Assembly: GCF_010672085.1 (NCBI RefSeq)
Contig: NZ_JAAHHT010000013.1
Coordinates: 48,288 to 86,454, forward strand
DNA length: 38,167 nucleotides
Origin: Okeania sp. SIO3I5
GTDB lineage: Bacteria > Cyanobacteriota > Cyanobacteriia > Cyanobacteriales > Microcoleaceae
Direction: 5' to 3'
Positions 6,421-29,715 of the stretch are shown here, piece after piece. Made by a program: the position numbers and the translations under genes. The notes below the pieces were generated by a model that ran no database searches, had not been told where the DNA came from, and saw only the letters and a program-made list of their open reading frames with translations. Position 1 is the stretch's first letter. Each line of letters starts with the position of its first letter.

Positions 6421-6477
6421 AAAGGAAAGAGGAAAGAAGGAAAAAGGGAAAAAGGAGAAAAGAAAAGAGGGGAAGAA
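6421..6477 (+). other. 57-base homopurine tract beside the 6480 gene end
   Basis: Positions 6421-6477 are purine only on the plus strand, that is, polypyrimidine immediately after the stop codon on the coding strand. The paralogous gene at 8620 has an equivalent tract (8565-8617), so the tract belongs to the duplicated gene unit. It could form triplex-prone DNA or act in termination. Confidence 0.85.
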
Positions 6478-6479
6478 TC

Positions 6480-8459
6480 CTAGGAACGAAAGGCAGAAAA
6501 CACCGGAGAAGATGAGACGATCCGAAAACCCCTAATGTAGTTGAGGAAGTCGGCATCGTTATAGGAGCGTCTGGCACTGCGGCAAAGCCAAGAATAGTAG
6601 TTCCAGCTACCACCACGGAGCACTCTTATATTACTATGTCCTTCAGTTTCCCAAGCACTTCCGTCAGTAGGTGCTCCGTTATAATTATCGTGCCAAATAT
6701 CCTGACACCATTCCAACACATTGCCGTGCATATCGTATAAACCAAAAGCATTAGGTGGAAAACTTCCTACATCAGTTGTTTCTTCTCTATATTTACCTTT
6801 AGGAGCGTTGCCATAAGGATAATTACCGTCGTAGTTAACTAACTCAGACGTTATAGTTTTTCCAAAATAAAATGGTGTTGTTGTTCCTGCTCGACAAGCA
6901 TATTCCCACTGACTTTCACTGGGCAGTCTATAGGTTTTCCCAGTTCTCAAAGATAACTTTGTACAAAACTCTCTAGCGTTATGCCAATTTACATTTTCTA
7001 CTGGGCGGTTTTCTCCTTTAAATTTAGAAGGATTTTCTCCCATAATAGCTAAGTATTGTTCTTGAGTAATAGGGTATTTGGTCATATAAAAAGGTTGGAG
7101 AGTAACTTGATGTTGAAGACTTTCACTTTGATCTCTTTCCTCCTCATTTTCTGGCGAACCCATAAGAAAACTTCCTCCAGGAATATAAACCATTTCTAAC
7201 TTAATATCACTACCTAAATCTTCTATTTTTTGCCTAGCACTTCCCTGGGTACGGTTAGTAATATAGCCTGAATTATCGACAGTAAAAACATTAAAAGTAA
7301 ATACCTCTCCTTTTTCTGATTCTGTTAAAGAAAAAACACAGGGCATTGATGATTGAGATATTTCTGGTGGAGAAGTAAATTGTTTTTGTGGTTGAGAAGT
7401 AAATTGAATAATTGATGGTTGAGATATTTGCGGTGGAACAGCAGACCGTGGTTTTATTTGATATTTAGGCTGAATAAAAGACAAAATTTCTCCTACATTT
7501 TTAAACCTTTTCTTAGTCGCTGCGACAATCATTTTATCCAAGATTTTTCCAACTTCATCACTCACTCTCGACTTTAAATAATCTCGCCAAACCCAATCAC
7601 TTTCACTCACATCAAATAAATCAAAAGGTTCTACTCCAGTTAATAAATGAATACAAGTCACACCCAAACTATAAATATCGCTAGAAAAAGTTGCTTTTCC
7701 TACTGCCTGTTCTGGTGCAGCATATCCCGCAGAACCTATCACAGTTCCGGTTACAGCTAAAGCAGTCATAGTGGCATATTTAGCTGCCCCAAAATCTACC
7801 AATATAATATTATTCTCTGGCGAGATAGAAGTTTGAACTGGATTAATTTTCTCTGGCGAGATAGAAGCTTGAACTGGATTAATTTTCTCTGGCGAGATAG
7901 AAGCTTGAACTGGAGCTCCCATTGGATAAAATTGATTATTATTCTTTCTCCTAATAATATTCTCTGGTTTAATATCTCGATGAATTACCTGTTGAGAATG
8001 AATAAATTCCAACACGGGCAACAAACTTTTTAATAATTCTAAAATTTGACTTTCATCAAAAGCACCCGACTCTTCTAATTCCTGTTGTAAATTTTGCCCG
8101 TCGATAAACTCTTGTACTAAATACTGTCGATTATCCTGAGTAAAATATGCGAAAAGTTCGGGAATTTGTAGATGTCTACCTAAACTATCCAAACGTTCAG
8201 CTTCTCGATCAAATAATTCAGCAGCTTTTTCCAAACTTTTAGTTCCTTGTACTTGAGGAAAAAACTGTTTAATTACGCAAAAAGGCTTTGAAGGTTTGTC
8301 TTCATCTACAGCTTGAAAAGTTATGCCAAAACCTCCTTGCCCGATAATTTTTAGAGCGCGATAACGTTCTCTTAAAACTAATTTTTCACCACAGCTTTGA
8401 CAGAATATTGTTTGTGGAGGGTTAAGTTTTAAACAGTCAGGATTTAAACATTGAGTCAT
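6480..8459 (-). CDS. Zinc-ribbon Ser/Thr kinase with C-terminal FGE-sulfatase/CLec domain; candidate DGR target
   Basis: A 659-residue protein. A Cys4 ribbon (C4, C9, C20, C23) is followed by a Hanks-type kinase: GQGGFGITF 40-48, Lys64 in VIKQFF, HRDIKPEN 160-167, DFG 222-224, and an APEQ motif. A linker leads to a formylglycine-generating-enzyme-like domain from about residue 422 (YIPGGSFLMGSPENE, YRLPSESQWEYACRAG, FGLYDMHGNVLEWCQD, LRGGSW). That fold in non-enzymatic form is the C-type-lectin scaffold used by DGR variable proteins. Between RDIKPEN and DFG lies a 37-residue insert of three 12-residue repeats that is absent from the paralogue at 8620. The last 40 codons differ from the paralogue in a DGR-like way. 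I infer a signalling receptor with a diversified ligand-binding end. Confidence 0.9.
   Translation of the reverse strand: MTQCLNPDCLKLNPPQTIFCQSCGEKLVLRERYRALKIIGQGGFGITFQAVDEDKPSKPFCVIKQFFPQVQGTKSLEKAAELFDREAERLDSLGRHLQIPELFAYFTQDNRQYLVQEFIDGQNLQQELEESGAFDESQILELLKSLLPVLEFIHSQQVIHRDIKPENIIRRKNNNQFYPMGAPVQASISPEKINPVQASISPEKINPVQTSISPENNIILVDFGAAKYATMTALAVTGTVIGSAGYAAPEQAVGKATFSSDIYSLGVTCIHLLTGVEPFDLFDVSESDWVWRDYLKSRVSDEVGKILDKMIVAATKKRFKNVGEILSFIQPKYQIKPRSAVPPQISQPSIIQFTSQPQKQFTSPPEISQSSMPCVFSLTESEKGEVFTFNVFTVDNSGYITNRTQGSARQKIEDLGSDIKLEMVYIPGGSFLMGSPENEEERDQSESLQHQVTLQPFYMTKYPITQEQYLAIMGENPSKFKGENRPVENVNWHNAREFCTKLSLRTGKTYRLPSESQWEYACRAGTTTPFYFGKTITSELVNYDGNYPYGNAPKGKYREETTDVGSFPPNAFGLYDMHGNVLEWCQDIWHDNYNGAPTDGSAWETEGHSNIRVLRGGSWNYYSWLCRSARRSYNDADFLNYIRGFRIVSSSPVFSAFRS
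6531..6617 (-). other. Candidate DGR variable region of the 6480 gene
   Basis: Covers the codons from RGGSW to the R before GFRIV. Compared codon by codon with 8671-8757 (same length, no gaps), most differences fall in the first and second positions of codons whose third base is the same C or T in both. Examples are AAC/TAC, TAC/AGC, CTT/AAT, TCC/AAC, GAT/CTT and TTC/AAC. That is what adenine-specific mutagenesis of AAC/AAT template codons yields. The flanking GGTTTTCG..TCGTCTC is conserved and could be the initiation-of-mutagenic-homology end. The template repeat and reverse transcriptase are not in this window. Confidence 0.7.
7809..7913 (-). repeat. Three 36-bp in-frame tandem repeats inside the kinase domain
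   Basis: Encodes PVQASISPEKIN, the same again, then PVQTSISPENN. It is inserted between the catalytic loop and DFG of the kinase (residues 183-217). The paralogue reads directly from RKNNNQ to LILVDFG. The copies are nearly identical in DNA, so the expansion is recent. Confidence 0.9.
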
Positions 8460-8564
8460 TTCTGAAAATATGGGGATAAACTTCTATCTCATTCCCATTC
8501 TCTAAATGGAAATTTAGGGTATTTGTTCATAATTTTGATGGTGATTTTTTCCACACGCTAAAGT

Positions 8565-8617
8565 GGGAGGGGGAGAGGAAAGAGGAAAAAAAAAGACAAA
8601 GAGAAAAAGGGGAAGAA
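8565..8617 (+). other. Homopurine tract beside the 8620 gene end
   Basis: Purine only apart from one C at 8597. It ends in the same GGGGAAGAATCCTAGGAAC context as the tract at 6421, directly after the stop codon on the coding strand. Confidence 0.85.
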
Positions 8618-8619
8618 TC

Positions 8620-10389
8620 CTAGGAACAAAAGGCAGAAACTACCGGAACAGAGGAGACGACACGAAAACCCCAAAAGTTGTAGAAGTTTACGGCAAGGAT
8701 GCAGTTACGCCTGGCACTCCGGCAATTCCTAGAATAGCTGTACCAGCTACCGCCACGGATCACTCTGTATGCTCCAAAGAGCGATTTCAAAAATCCCTTT
8801 TCTTCAGATTCCCAAGCACTACCATCATTAGGCGCTCCATTATAATTATTGTGCCAAAGATCCTGACACCATTCCCAGACATTCCCGTGCATATCGTATA
8901 AACCAAAAGCATTGGGTGGGAAAATTCCTACTTCAGTTGTTTCTCCTAGACATTTACCTTTAGGAGCATAAGCATAAGGAAATTTACTGTCGTAGTTAAC
9001 TAAGTCCGACGTTATAGTTTCTCCAAAATAGAAAGGAGTAGTTGTCCTGGCACGACAAGCATATTCCCACTGACTTTCGCTGGGCAGTCTGTAAACTTTC
9101 TCAGTTTTCTCAGATAGCTTTTGACAAAACTCTCTAGCGTTACGCCAGTTCATATTTTCTACTGGGCGCTTTTTTCCTTTAAATCCAGAAGGATTTTCAC
9201 CCGTAATGACTTGATATTGTTCTTGAGTAATGGGGTATTTACTCATATAAAAAGGTTGGAGAGTAACTTGATGTTGCGGACTTTCATTTTTATCTCTTCC
9301 TTTTTCATTTTCTGGAGAACCCATGAGAAAACTTCCCCCAGGAATATAAACCATTTCTAATTTAATTCCATTACCTAAATCTTCTATTTTTTGCCTAGCA
9401 CTTTCCTGGGTGTGGTTAATAATATTGCCTGAGTTATCGACAGTAAAAACATCAAAAGTAAATAGCTCTTCTTTTTCTGATTCTGCTGTTGATTGTTGAG
9501 ATATTTGTGGTGAAGAAGTAGACAGAATCAGAGACAAAATTTCTCCTACATTTTCAAACCTTTTCTGAGTTGCTCCAACAATCATTTTATCCAATATTTT
9601 TCCAAGTTCATCACTCACATTTGACTGTAAATAATCTCGCCATATCCATTTACCTTCAATATTGTCAAATAAATCAAGAGGTGTGACTTGAGTTAATAAA
9701 TGAATACAAGTTACACCCAAACTATAAATATCGCTAGCAAAAGTTGCTTTTCCTACAGCTTGTTCCGGTGCAAGATATCCAGCAGAACCTATAACAGTTC
9801 CCGTCACAGCTAAAGCACTCATAGTGGCATATTTAGCCGCCCCGAAATCTACCAATATTAATTGATTATTATTCTTTCTCCTAATAATATTCTCTGGTTT
9901 AATATCTCGATGAATTACTTGCTGAGAATGAATAAATTCCAACACGGGCAACAAACTTTTTAATAACTCCAAAATTTGACTTTCATCAAAAGCACCCGAC
10001 TCTTCTAATTCCTGTTGTAAATTTTGCCCGTCGATAAACTCTTGTACTAAATATTGTCGATTATCCTGAGTAAAATATGCGAAAAGTTCGGGAATTTGTA
10101 GATGTCTACCTAAACCATCCAAACGTTCAGCTTCTCGATCAAATAATTCAGCAGCTTTTTCCAAACTTTTAGTTCCTTGTACTTGAGGAAAAAACTGTTT
10201 AATTACGCAAAAAGGCTTTGAAGGTTTGTCTTCATCTACAGCTTGAAAAGTTATGCCAAAACCTCCTTGTCCGATAATTTTTAGAGGGCGATAACGTTCT
10301 TTTAAAACTAATTTTTCACCACAGCTTTGACAGAATTTTGTTTCTGGTGGGTTAGGTCTTAAACAGTCAGGATTTAAACATTGAGTCAT
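8620..10389 (-). CDS. Zinc-ribbon Ser/Thr kinase with C-terminal FGE-sulfatase/CLec domain; paralogue and candidate DGR target
   Basis: A 589-residue paralogue of the upstream-numbered gene at 6480, in tandem and on the same strand. The Cys4 ribbon and first ~170 kinase residues are almost identical (GQGGFGITF, VIKQFF, HRDIKPEN), which implies recent duplication or gene conversion. DFG follows RKNNNQLILV with no repeat insert, and the linker before the FGE-like domain is shorter. The C-terminal domain keeps YIPGGSFLMGSPENE, YRLPSESQWEYACRA, YDMHGNVWEWCQD and VIRGGSW, then diverges sharply in the terminal 40 codons. It carries an extra segment (EEKGFLKSLFGAY) just before VIRGGSW. Probable role: kinase signalling coupled to a diversified ligand-binding domain. 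Kinase activity is predicted because the catalytic residues are present. Confidence 0.9.
   Translation of the reverse strand: MTQCLNPDCLRPNPPETKFCQSCGEKLVLKERYRPLKIIGQGGFGITFQAVDEDKPSKPFCVIKQFFPQVQGTKSLEKAAELFDREAERLDGLGRHLQIPELFAYFTQDNRQYLVQEFIDGQNLQQELEESGAFDESQILELLKSLLPVLEFIHSQQVIHRDIKPENIIRRKNNNQLILVDFGAAKYATMSALAVTGTVIGSAGYLAPEQAVGKATFASDIYSLGVTCIHLLTQVTPLDLFDNIEGKWIWRDYLQSNVSDELGKILDKMIVGATQKRFENVGEILSLILSTSSPQISQQSTAESEKEELFTFDVFTVDNSGNIINHTQESARQKIEDLGNGIKLEMVYIPGGSFLMGSPENEKGRDKNESPQHQVTLQPFYMSKYPITQEQYQVITGENPSGFKGKKRPVENMNWRNAREFCQKLSEKTEKVYRLPSESQWEYACRARTTTPFYFGETITSDLVNYDSKFPYAYAPKGKCLGETTEVGIFPPNAFGLYDMHGNVWEWCQDLWHNNYNGAPNDGSAWESEEKGFLKSLFGAYRVIRGGSWYSYSRNCRSARRNCILAVNFYNFWGFRVVSSVPVVSAFCS
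8671..8757 (-). other. Candidate DGR variable region of the 8620 gene
   Basis: Codons from RGGSW to the W before GFRVV. Variable codons include TAC, AGC, AAT, AAC, ATC, CTT and TTC, set in conserved frames (TGCCG.AGTGCCAG is common to both paralogues). See 6531-6617 for the comparison. Third positions of the variable codons are conserved whereas first and second positions are not, the reverse of ordinary coding drift. Confidence 0.7.
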
Positions 10390-20574: not shown

Positions 20575-21093
20575 TTAACCTTTCGACTTTTTCCTTTTTG
20601 CCCGCTGCTGAAGCACTTCCGGAGGAGGACCATAATCTCCATCACTAAAATATACTCGCTCTACTATATGTTCCGGTTCTACTTCAATCCACAGACGGGC
20701 ACCTCCGGCTTGACTATTATTAGGTTGATGAGGTTGATAAACGATTTGGCAAGGTCCTTTGATTTTCAGAGCGTGGCAATAATCCTTTTTATCTCCTACC
20801 TTCACAGCAAGTGCTGAATAAGAAGTTCCATGATCTCGGTTGTAATCTATAGTCTTTCGTAGAACATGAACAAAAGTATTAGCTGTACGCCTATTTTTAT
20901 TCCAAGAGCCTTCAGGACCACGGCGACCTGGTGTAATTTCTGGCATTCCCCGTTTGTTTAATGGAATCATCCAACGTCTCCCATCTTTGTAAGCATCTCG
21001 AACACGACCTTCATTCAGTAATGTTCGTAATCTACCTGTGGAAATATTGAGTAAAAATGCTGCTTGTGTTGTAGTTGCTTTTTCTATAGTCAT
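20575..21093 (-). CDS. Small DNA-binding protein with helix-turn-helix, unknown regulon
   Basis: A 172-residue protein from ATG 21093; an in-frame TTG at 21141 would add 16 residues, but ATG is preferred. Residues about 5-45 (TTTQAAFLLNISTGRLRTLL, then DGRRWMIPL) are an excisionase/MerR-like winged helix-turn-helix of the HTH_17 type. The middle (TPGRRGPEGSWNKNRR) is basic, and the rest is a small mixed domain ending in a Lys/Arg tail (QQRAKRKKSKG). It is divergent from treZ with 174 bases between the starts, so it could regulate treZ; that is inference from position only. Such proteins may also belong to mobile elements. Confidence 0.65.
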   Translation of the reverse strand: MTIEKATTTQAAFLLNISTGRLRTLLNEGRVRDAYKDGRRWMIPLNKRGMPEITPGRRGPEGSWNKNRRTANTFVHVLRKTIDYNRDHGTSYSALAVKVGDKKDYCHALKIKGPCQIVYQPHQPNNSQAGGARLWIEVEPEHIVERVYFSDGDYGPPPEVLQQRAKRKKSKG

Positions 21094-21267
21094 AACTATA
21101 ACGTCTGGGTTTTTAGATTTTAGAATATTAACTCTTAGCAATTAGACCGAGAAACTGAAAACCAAATTTCATCAATTTCAATTATAATTTTTTGGATAAT
21201 CATAAAAAACATATATTCTCAAATAATATTTGATCGAAAACTTAACCGTCTAAGGAGATTTCAATTT

Positions 21268-27767: not shown

Positions 27768-29715
27768 TTATTGGTAAAAATTAGGATTACCATACGGAGC
27801 TAGAGATTTTTGTCGATTTCTCTTGTGCTGAAAGTTTCCACAAACAGAATGATTGTCTGGCGGAAAAACAACTTTCTCAATATCTCTGAAATTCCTGATT
27901 ATTTGCTCAAAAGTTTCAAGGGGAAAATTGGAATTACCATACTGAGCTAGAGATTTTTGTCGGTTTCTCTTGTGCTGAAAGTTTCCACAAACAGAATGAT
28001 TGTCTGGCGGAAAAACAACTTTCTCAATATCTCTGAAATTCCTGATTATTTGCTCAAAAGTTTCAAGGGGAAAATTGGAATTACCATGCGGAGCTAGAGA
28101 TTTTTGTCGATTCCTCTTATGCTGAAAATTTCTACAAGCAGAATAATTGTCTCGTGGAAAAAAAACTTTCTCAATATCTGGGAAATTCCTGATTATTTGC
28201 TCAAAATTTTCTCGGTAAAAATTAGAATTACCATAGGGAACTAGAGATTTTTGTCGATTCCTCTTGTGCTGAAAATTTCCACAATGCAGAATAATTGTGT
28301 GATGGAAAAAAACTTTCTCAATATCTCTGAAATTCCTGATTATTTGCTCAAAATTTTCTCGGTAAAAATTGAGATTACCATAAGGAGCTAGAGATTTTTG
28401 TCAATAGTTTATCGGTAAAAATCTAGAGATTTTTGTCGATTATTCTTGTGCTGAAAATTTTCACAGACAACATGATTGTGTGGTAAAAAACAACTTTCTC
28501 AGTATCTGGGAAATTCCTGATTATTTGCTCAAAATTTTCTCGGTAAAAATTAGGATTACCATAGGGAACTAGAGATTTTTGTCGATTCCTTTTGTGCTGA
28601 AAATTTTCACAGACAGAATGATTGTGTGGTAAAAAACAACTTTCTCAGTATCTGGGAAATGTCCTGATTATTTGCTCAAAAGTTTCTCGGTAAAAATTAG
28701 GATTACCATAGGGAACTAGAGATTTTTGTCGATTTCTCTTGTGCTGAAAATTTCCACAATGCAGAATAATTGTGTGATGGAAAAAAACTTTTTCAAGTTC
28801 TGGGAAGTTCGTGATTATTTGCTCAAAATTTTCTCGGTAAAAATTAGGATTACCATAGGGAACTAGAGATTTTTGTCGATTTCTCTTGTGCTGAAAATTT
28901 CCACAAGTAGAATAATTGTGTCGTGGAAAAGCAACTTTATCAATTCCTCTTGTGCTGAAAATTTCCACAATGCAGAATAATTGTGTGGTGGAAAAAAACT
29001 TTCTCAATATCTCTGAAATTCCTGATTATTTGCTCAAAATTTTCTCGGTAAAAATTAGGATTACCATACTGAGCTAGAGATTTTTGTCGATTTCTCTTGT
29101 GCTGAAAATTTCCATAAGCAAAATAATTGTGTGTTGGAAAAGCAACTTTCCCAATATCTTGAAAATTCCTGATTATTTGCTCAAAATTTTCTCGGTAAAA
29201 ATTAGGATTACCATACTGAGCTAGAGATTTTTGTCGATTTCTCTTGTGCTGAAAATTTCCATAAGCAAAATAATTGTGTGTTGGAAAAGCAACTTTCCCA
29301 ATATCTTGAAAATTCCTGATTATTTGCTCAAAATTTTCAAGGGGAAAGTTGGAATTACCATATTGAACTAGAGATTTTTGTCGATTCCTCTTATGCTGAA
29401 AATTTCTACAAGCAGAATAATTGTCTCGTGGAAAAAAAACTTTCTCAATATCTCTGAAATTCCTGATTATTTGTTCAAAATTTTCTAGGTAAAATTATAA
29501 TTCCCATAGGGAGCTAGAAATTTTTGTCTATTCCTCTTGTGCTGAAAATTTCCATAAGCAAAATAATTGTGTCGTGGAAAAACAACTTTCTCAAACTCTC
29601 TGAAATTCCTGATTATTTGCTCAAAATTTTCTCGGTAAAAATTAGGATGACCATACTAAGCTAGAGATTTTTGTCGATTCCTCTTGTGCTGAAAATTTCC
29701 ACAAACAGACAAAAA
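27768..29715 (-). repeat. Tandem array of about 13 copies of a 147-bp (49-codon) repeat
   Basis: The landmark TAGAGATTTTTGTC occurs at 27801, 27948, 28095, 28242, 28389, 28424, 28570, 28717, 28864, 29075, 29222, 29369 and 29662 (TAGAAATTTTTGTC at 29515). Spacing is 146-147 bp except for one 35-bp fragment and one 64-bp partial duplication. On the minus strand each unit reads like protein: NFQHKRNRQKSL, (V/A)PYGNPNFYREN, FEQIIRNFRDIEKV, then FP..N.S.CG. One unbroken frame runs from about 28408 to a TAA at 27768-27770 with no ATG, GTG or TTG in it. Elsewhere stops and shifts break the frame. It may be a decayed repeat-protein gene or a non-coding array. Confidence 0.9.

What the first reader, a model, noticed from the sequence alone, without database searches (positions are those of the whole stretch)
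6480..10389. Tandem kinase-lectin paralogues whose last ~40 codons look like DGR variable regions
The N-terminal halves are nearly identical, yet the C-terminal stretch from RGGSW to GFR is highly divergent with no length change. About a dozen differing codons keep the same third base (C, T or G) while positions one and two change (for example CTT/AAT, TCC/AAC, TTC/AAC, TAC/AGC). Neutral drift would vary third positions most; adenine-directed mutagenesis of AAC/AAT template codons gives exactly this. The FGE-sulfatase/C-type-lectin fold is the known scaffold of DGR variable proteins, and kinase fusions fit a diversified signalling receptor. The reverse transcriptase and template must be elsewhere, making these remote targets.
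Basis: partly seen in the sequence, partly recalled or inferred. Interest (0 to 1): 0.88.

Follow-up and report, generated by a model that had tools for sequence, protein, structure and literature searches.

The report
Orphaned hypervariable kinase-receptor gene pair
Two neighbouring cyanobacterial kinase genes end in a patch that was scrambled by a known targeted-mutation system, but the machine that did it appears broken in this genome, and one of the scrambled patches is kept unchanged in another species.

Summary
Against the templates of an intact DGR in a related Okeania genome, window VR1 differs at 12 of 29 template adenines and 2 of 67 other bases; VR2 at 12-13 of 29 and 6 of 67. The 450 nt upstream show no adenine bias. 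The window genome holds 18 strong paralogues ending this way.

The prediction that RT and template lie elsewhere in the genome is not met in this assembly. The only DGR-type RT found is a 113-aa C-terminal stub on contig C526; its 5' two-thirds and the adjoining template are deleted. No template, template flank or above-cut-off Avd was found. In 12 genomes (the window's and 11 relatives) one RT of this lineage is intact, five are broken, one is deleted with cassette flanks left, five have none; 11 of 12 carry variable regions. Window VR2 matches its counterpart in an RT-less species except for one silent base, so it looks frozen.

A new member of a known kind (remote kinase-CLec DGR targets), in an apparently generator-less state only hinted at in print.

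The parts
6480..8459 (-). Gene A: 659-aa Ser/Thr kinase + FGE-sulfatase/CLec domain, carries VR1
   Evidence: ORF; Pfam Pkinase 33-319 and FGE-sulfatase 422-648; 4-Cys prefix (NF045510)
8620..10389 (-). Gene B: 589-aa Ser/Thr kinase + FGE-sulfatase/CLec domain, carries VR2
   Evidence: ORF; Pfam Pkinase 33-278 and FGE-sulfatase 345-578; 4-Cys prefix (NF045510)
6522..6617 (-). VR1, 96-nt DGR variable region (RGGSW...RGFR)
   Evidence: 12/29 A sites vs 2/67 non-A sites changed against the G027 downstream template TR2
8662..8757 (-). VR2, 96-nt DGR variable region (RGGSW...WGFR)
   Evidence: 12/29 A vs 6/67 non-A against TR2, 13/29 vs 6/67 against TR1; same as the G030 VR except one silent base
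6469..6521 (-). Conserved 3' end of VR1 over the stop codon (TTCCTAG-GATTCTTCCCC), candidate initiation-of-mutagenic-homing site
   Evidence: TTCCTAG in 13 of 18 G000 paralogues, TTCCTAGGATTCTTCC in 11 of 18; three of four templates carry TTCCTAG-CACTCTTCATT instead, the G004 template is intermediate
8609..8661 (-). Same conserved 3' end for VR2
7503..8363 (-). Kinase domain of gene A
9556..10293 (-). Kinase domain of gene B
6516..7196 (-). FGE-sulfatase/CLec domain of gene A, scaffold of VR1
8656..9357 (-). FGE-sulfatase/CLec domain of gene B, scaffold of VR2
   Evidence: matches Treponema denticola variable protein 1 (2y3c) E=1.1e-20

Best explanation
The two genes are target genes of a diversity-generating retroelement. 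The DGR reverse transcriptase copied a template RNA into cDNA with random bases opposite template adenines, and the cDNA replaced the 3' end of the target gene up to a conserved site over the stop codon. That rewrote codons (mostly AAC/AAT in the template) of a C-type-lectin-like domain fused to a Ser/Thr kinase, giving receptor kinases with different binding faces. Shown here: adenine-directed divergence from a related genome's template, the scaffold, the conserved 3' site, the deletion stub that is the only DGR-type RT detected in the window genome, and that VR2 has not been rewritten since it shared an ancestor with the G030 copy. Inferred from known DGRs: the copying mechanism, ligand binding, and control of the kinase. 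In this genome the generator is most likely dead, leaving up to 18 orphaned variant genes that now evolve as ordinary genes.
For: Intact DGR in G027 (Okeania sp. SIO2C9 by equal contig length): Avd (NF033474, 137 bits against a cut-off of 80), RT of 353 aa with GNLTSQ and YVDD, one template on each side. VR-template mismatches: over 11 window-genome VRs (each against the better-fitting of the two templates) 149/319 A sites vs 85/737 non-A sites, p=5e-34; 9 of 11 individually p<0.01. Positive controls with the genome's own template: G027 local VR 10/29 vs 0/67, G027 remote VR on C24 14/29 vs 0/67, G001 14/29 vs 4/67, G004 12/30 vs 2/66. Codon-position and upstream controls. Mean column entropy over 13 VRs 1.42 bits at 28 template-A columns, 0.44 at 66 other columns. 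RT stub colinear with the G027 cassette: VR, template 5' flank up to CTCCGTG, ~1.9 kb missing with a 15-bp filler, then RT from the DD of YVDD. Template 3' flank in 3 of 12 genomes, not the window's. Avd above cut-off in 4 of 12, not the window's. VR2: 1 silent difference in 96 nt against G030, flanks 94-96% identical.
Against: Absence is from a 562-contig draft; repeats such as templates and VRs break assemblies, and a 100-N gap lies ~0.6 kb past the RT stub. One search scored only 40 of 414 first-look candidates in the window genome, so a diverged relic could be missed. Two of 11 VRs (C335, C335b) show no significant A bias, and for the 4 paralogues of the 33-codon class no template was available to test. 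VR2 has 6 non-A mismatches, more than the G027 VRs on C2 and C24 have to their own templates. The frozen comparison for the window rests on one locus whose coding sequence differs less between the two genomes (37 mismatches in a 1770-nt gene) than glgX does (6.7%), so it may have been exchanged between lineages. VR1 has no clean orthologue. No expression, binding or kinase data.
Confidence: 0.75

Rival explanations
1. The genes are live remote targets: an intact RT, Avd and template exist in the organism but are missing from this draft assembly.
For: Draft of 562 contigs. Trichodesmium erythraeum IMS101 has two DGR-RTs and remote targets, and at least 11 of 18 template/VR loci are hypervariable in ocean metagenomes (PMC8867640, passages). 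Window VR1 has only 2 non-A mismatches to a related genome's template, so its rewriting need not be old.
Against: Genome scored 99.98% complete. Queries for RT, Avd, template and template flank missed except for the stub. The stub's deletion junction lies inside a contig. A similar loss pattern is seen in relatives, including the 110-contig G030. VR2 is unchanged against G030.
Confidence: 0.2
2. Ordinary paralogue divergence with positive selection on a ligand-binding surface, no DGR.
For: The scaffold is a ligand-binding fold and amino-acid change is concentrated at its C-terminal end. Two of 11 paralogues show no significant A bias.
Against: Changes fall on template adenines while other bases at codon positions 1 and 2 stay (VR1 0 of 35, VR2 1 of 35). 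A template with those adenines sits beside an RT and Avd in a related genome. Upstream control regions show no A bias.
Confidence: 0.02
3. In addition to the above (not exclusive of it): recombination between the paralogues moved VRs around, so some differences between copies reflect gene conversion rather than local rewriting.
For: Gene A is mosaic against G030: its first ~530 bp align at ~96% identity, the rest at 78%. 3' intergenic flanks are shared among paralogues.
Against: It does not create the adenine pattern, only moves it. At the VR2 locus the 2.9-kb alignment to G030 runs through without a break in identity.
Confidence: 0.3

Closest known systems
Remote variable proteins of cyanobacterial DGRs (Vallota-Eastman et al. 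2020, PMC7517822; abstract, sections 5 and 6 and passages seen)
   Same: Ser/Thr kinase fused to a C-terminal CLec domain with a VR at the gene's 3' end; many dispersed paralogues; filamentous cyanobacteria including Trichodesmium
   Different: In the window genome no intact RT or template is found. The paper reports one paralogue (all3226) with remnant homology and no RT nearby, but in Nostoc PCC 7120, which has two DGRs, and one degraded cassette (RT only, Anabaena sp. 90); [quoted passage not shown] Here the whole set appears orphaned and one VR is shown unchanged between species
Trichodesmium erythraeum IMS101 DGRs (PMC8867640, passages seen)
   Same: Same group of organisms; two DGR-RTs, 18 loci with template/VR homology, remote targets
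   Different: There at least 11 loci are hypervariable in ocean metagenomes; the window genome's only DGR RT is a deletion stub
Treponema denticola variable protein 1 (TvpA, PDB 2y3c)
   Same: Same fold by sequence, E=1.1e-20; DGR variable protein (recalled)
   Different: Different phylum and not a kinase fusion (recalled)
Two-template DGRs (PMC6642488, passages seen; e.g. Stenotrophomonas sp. SKA14 with two TRs)
   Same: More than one template per DGR, as in G027, where template 1 fits the local VR and template 2 fits remote VRs
   Different: In G027 the templates stand on either side of Avd and RT and fit different targets; the window genome has no template

Membership tests
DGR target gene (variable protein) | VR differing from a template almost only at template adenines | tested here: met
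   Against a related genome's template: VR1 12/29 A vs 2/67 non-A; VR2 12-13/29 vs 6/67. The genome's own template is not available
DGR target gene (variable protein) | VR at the 3' end of an ORF on a CLec/FGE-type scaffold | tested here: met
   Pfam FGE-sulfatase match reaches to 11 residues from the C-terminus in both proteins; 2y3c match. Structure prediction was too poor to place the variable residues
DGR target gene (variable protein) | Distinct site at the VR 3' end that differs in the template (IMH versus IMH*) | tested here: met
   TTCCTAG-GATTCTTCC at both window VRs; TTCCTAG-CACTCTTCATT at three of four templates, the G004 template is intermediate. By sequence only, function not tested
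Complete DGR in the window genome | Intact DGR RT | tested here: not met
   Only a 113-aa stub. Other RTs of the window genome are 26% identical or less to the G027 DGR RT
Complete DGR in the window genome | Template repeat | tested here: not met
   The 11 pattern hits lie in FGE-type reading frames; 10 hits of the longer pattern fall at places already known as gene ends; template 3' flank 0 hits. Draft assembly
Complete DGR in the window genome | Avd accessory protein | tested here: not met
   Best NF033474 score 26.5 bits against a cut-off of 80
Active diversification | VR variation within a population or between strains while flanks are constant | tested here: inconclusive
   VR2 vs G030: 1 silent change in 96 nt, so no rewriting there. 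VR1 has no clean orthologue; no population reads
Hanks-type Ser/Thr kinase | Pkinase domain above cut-off | tested here: met
   120.3 and 131.1 bits, cut-off 31.7; activity not tested

The most novel reading that the evidence does not exclude
In this Trichodesmium/Okeania clade the DGR acts as a disposable generator: it builds a repertoire of diversified receptor kinases and is then lost repeatedly by different lesions, while the diversified receptors are kept as fixed genes, some unchanged across species.
Probability: 0.35. Interest if true: 0.7.

Novelty: new member of a known kind. Interest (0 to 1): 0.47.

Why it matters
Cyanobacterial DGR targets are thought to tune signalling, and PMC7517822 suggested that the generator may be removed once a good variant exists. 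This clade offers a comparison of genomes with intact, broken and undetected generators, with variable regions still in place in 11 of 12, and a variable region shared unchanged between two species. It makes the question of whether DGRs make permanent receptors or only transient variants testable from sequence and by binding assays on a fixed variant.

Tried and rejected
A structure prediction of the FGE domain with a 29-sequence alignment gave mean pLDDT 60 and below 50 through most of the VR, so it is not used. The C201 contig first looked like a second cassette remnant because it matches the block between template 1 and Avd, but that block recurs in many places, so no claim is made. A motif scan for the DGR-type SQ versus SP matched in only 12 of 40 loci, so I rely on the identity searches instead. 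In the count, C335 and C335b were kept although not significant; C38 (30 codons), C218 and C117 (missed by the motif), the four 33-codon copies and C301 (not VR-like in my view) were left out, and each VR was scored against whichever template gave fewer non-A mismatches, which favours the DGR reading somewhat; one search shows all four templates for the window's two VRs. VR1 was compared with G030, but gene A is mosaic there, so it gives no fair between-species test. Purifying selection on frozen VRs: 4 of 4 changes in two pairs are silent (chance 0.0016), but gene B overall has 23 replacement to 14 silent changes and only ~2 changes are expected in its VR, so I claim only that rewriting has not happened, not strong constraint. 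The Rfam scan of the window found nothing. The primary Pfreundt 2014 paper is not held and is known to me only through PMC8867640. Literature on broken, orphan or Okeania DGRs: one search listed 6 papers (listing and abstract starts only, none on this case), searches found 0; this covers only the held library and these search words. Passages of PMC10907252, PMC3521204 and PMC8144416 were also seen and are not used as support.

Full report
Observation. The window carries two minus-strand genes, 6480-8459 (659 aa, gene A) and 8620-10389 (589 aa, gene B). Both have a 4-Cys prefix, a Ser/Thr kinase domain and a C-terminal FGE-sulfatase domain. In the first 180 alignment columns 7 of 176 aligned residues differ. 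The RGGSW...GFR stretch differs at 27 of 96 nt, 12/8/7 by codon position, with no indel. Of 15 codons changed at position 1 or 2, 13 keep the third base (my count).

Copies in the genome. A pattern built on the two stretches found 11 copies in the window's genome (G000, 10.5 Mb, 562 contigs) with up to 3 mismatches, against 0 for the reversed control pattern; all 11 lie near the end of an FGE-type reading frame. A protein search with the end of gene B found 24 rows. Eighteen score above 200 bits, and these 18 all end in an RGG...GFR stretch (16 by motif; C218 and C117 by eye). The other six rows are C301, three pieces of a broken copy on C1, C213 and C332. Two of the 18 (C335, C92) have an in-frame stop in the matched stretch and some sit in short frames, so part of the family is decaying. 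The 18 fall into 14 with 30-32 codons and 4 with 33 codons (C539, C111, C92b, C161) and a different 3' end; variable A-containing columns in those 4 suggest another template, for which I had no sequence to test.

Template. In a set of 59 genomes (the window's own included) 15 have a match to the RT stub described below. G027, by equal contig length Okeania sp. SIO2C9, holds an intact cassette: a TPR-FGE target gene, template 1, Avd, an RT of 353 aa with GNLTSQ and YVDD, then template 2. Window VR1 against template 2: 12/29 adenines changed, 2/67 other bases, both at third positions. VR2: 12/29 and 6/67 against template 2, 13/29 and 6/67 against template 1. Counting only codon positions 1 and 2, against template 2, VR1 is 12/29 vs 0/35 and VR2 12/29 vs 1/35. 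The 450 nt upstream show no A bias in four comparisons. Over 11 VRs of G000, each against the better-fitting template: 149/319 vs 85/737 (p=5e-34); 9 of 11 have p<0.01; C335 (p=0.13) and C335b (p=0.26) do not. Controls with the genome's own template: G027 local VR vs template 1 10/29 and 0/67; G027 remote VR on C24 vs template 2 14/29 and 0/67; G001 14/29 and 4/67; G004 12/30 and 2/66. Further G027 VRs: C250 vs template 2 9/29 and 1/67; C256 fits neither cleanly (8/29 and 6/67, 9/29 and 5/67). So the two G027 templates appear to serve different targets.

Machinery in the window genome. RVT_1 gave 31 matches. The only DGR-type RT is a 113-aa C-terminal stub at C526:36263-36601; the other RTs of G000 are 26% identical or less to the G027 RT. 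The stub follows a VR and is colinear with G027: VR, template 5' flank up to CTCCGTG, ~1.9 kb missing, a 15-bp filler that looks like the ACTGATA-type repeats found elsewhere, then RT from the DD of YVDD to near its end; no template 2 stands behind it. The template 3' flank pattern has no hit in G000, and the best Avd score is 26.5 bits against a cut-off of 80. A DNA search with the whole G027 cassette again gave the stub as best hit, but only 40 of 414 first-look candidates were scored.

Relatives. Of 12 genomes examined, the window's included (details): an intact RT of this lineage in G027 only; broken in G000 (deletion), G001 (frame breaks), G002 (N-terminal part not found plus a stop), G003 (frame break) and G004 (frame break plus stop; a second, 61%-identical DGR RT there has a stop too). 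None in G005, G006, G012, G018, G023 and G030, where matches are 34% identical or less. In G018 cassette flanks remain around a deletion: VR, template 5' flank, heptamer repeats, then the sequence downstream of template 2. 11 of 12 genomes have hits to the long VR/template pattern; G002 has none. The lesions differ between genomes, which suggests repeated loss, but these are drafts of 110 to 1510 contigs and single absences or frame breaks may be assembly faults; G030 (110 contigs) is the best of the RT-less ones.

Frozen variable region. The glgX-anchored locus in G030 holds the same gene pair. Its VR2 counterpart is identical in protein and differs by one silent base in 96 nt, with flanks 94-96% identical. 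A second pair, G012:C35 and G018:C44, differs by three silent bases. The other five candidate pairs that passed the same filter (88-92% upstream identity) differ at 23-30 of 96 nt and 14-19 residues, including G001 and G004, where the VR sits in the cassette; some of these may be paralogues. Gene B as a whole has 37 mismatches between G000 and G030, 14 silent and 23 replacement, one of them between the VR start and the stop, so the VR is simply not being rewritten. glgX differs more (6.7%), so exchange of the locus between lineages is possible.

Mechanism. By established DGR biology (recalled), RT copies the template RNA with random bases opposite A, and the cDNA replaces the VR up to a 3' site. 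Here both window VRs end in TTCCTAG-GATTCTTCC and three of four templates in TTCCTAG-CACTCTTCATT (the G004 template is intermediate), which fits an IMH/IMH* pair; 13 of the 18 G000 paralogues carry TTCCTAG and 11 the full VR form. The scaffold matches Treponema denticola variable protein 1 (2y3c, E=1.1e-20). That the variable face binds a ligand and steers the kinase is inferred.

What is known. PMC7517822 (abstract, sections 5 and 6 and passages seen) describes kinase-CLec remote variable proteins in cyanobacteria, a paralogue with remnant homology and no RT nearby, a degraded cassette, and the idea that the generator may be removed. PMC8867640 (passages) reports two DGR-RTs and 18 template/VR loci in T. 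erythraeum IMS101. PMC6642488 (passages) reports multi-template DGRs. The window genes are therefore a new member of a known kind; the apparently generator-less repertoire and the cross-species unchanged VR are the new parts. Literature searches gave nothing on this case in the held library.

Noticed in passing
L061:6120-8800 (G027:C2): Intact DGR with two templates, one on each side of Avd and RT; template 1 fits the local VR with no non-A mismatch, template 2 fits a remote VR on C24 with no non-A mismatch.
   Followed up: partly
window 7813-7914: In-frame 36-bp tandem repeat (2.8 copies) inside the kinase domain of gene A, between the HRD and DFG motifs, absent from gene B.
   Followed up: no
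L039:4234-4248 (G000:C526) and L224 (G018:C61) after the VR: In both broken cassettes the template is cut near its start and ACTGATA/TTATCAG-type heptamer repeats stand at the break.
   Followed up: partly
window 27776-29709: Long array of ~147-bp tandem repeats, about 13 copies estimated from length and period; no Rfam match in the window.
   Followed up: no
window 20575-21141 (-): 188-aa protein that by eye resembles the ORF just downstream of template 2 in G027 (L061:8943-9491).
   Followed up: no
G000:C539, C111, C92, C161, C1: A second VR-like family (33 codons, different 3' end) suggesting another template, with no matching RT found in the genome.
   Followed up: partly
L066 (G004:C237): A second, more distant DGR (RT 61% identical to G027's) with three VR/template-like copies; its RT has an in-frame stop.
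   Followed up: no
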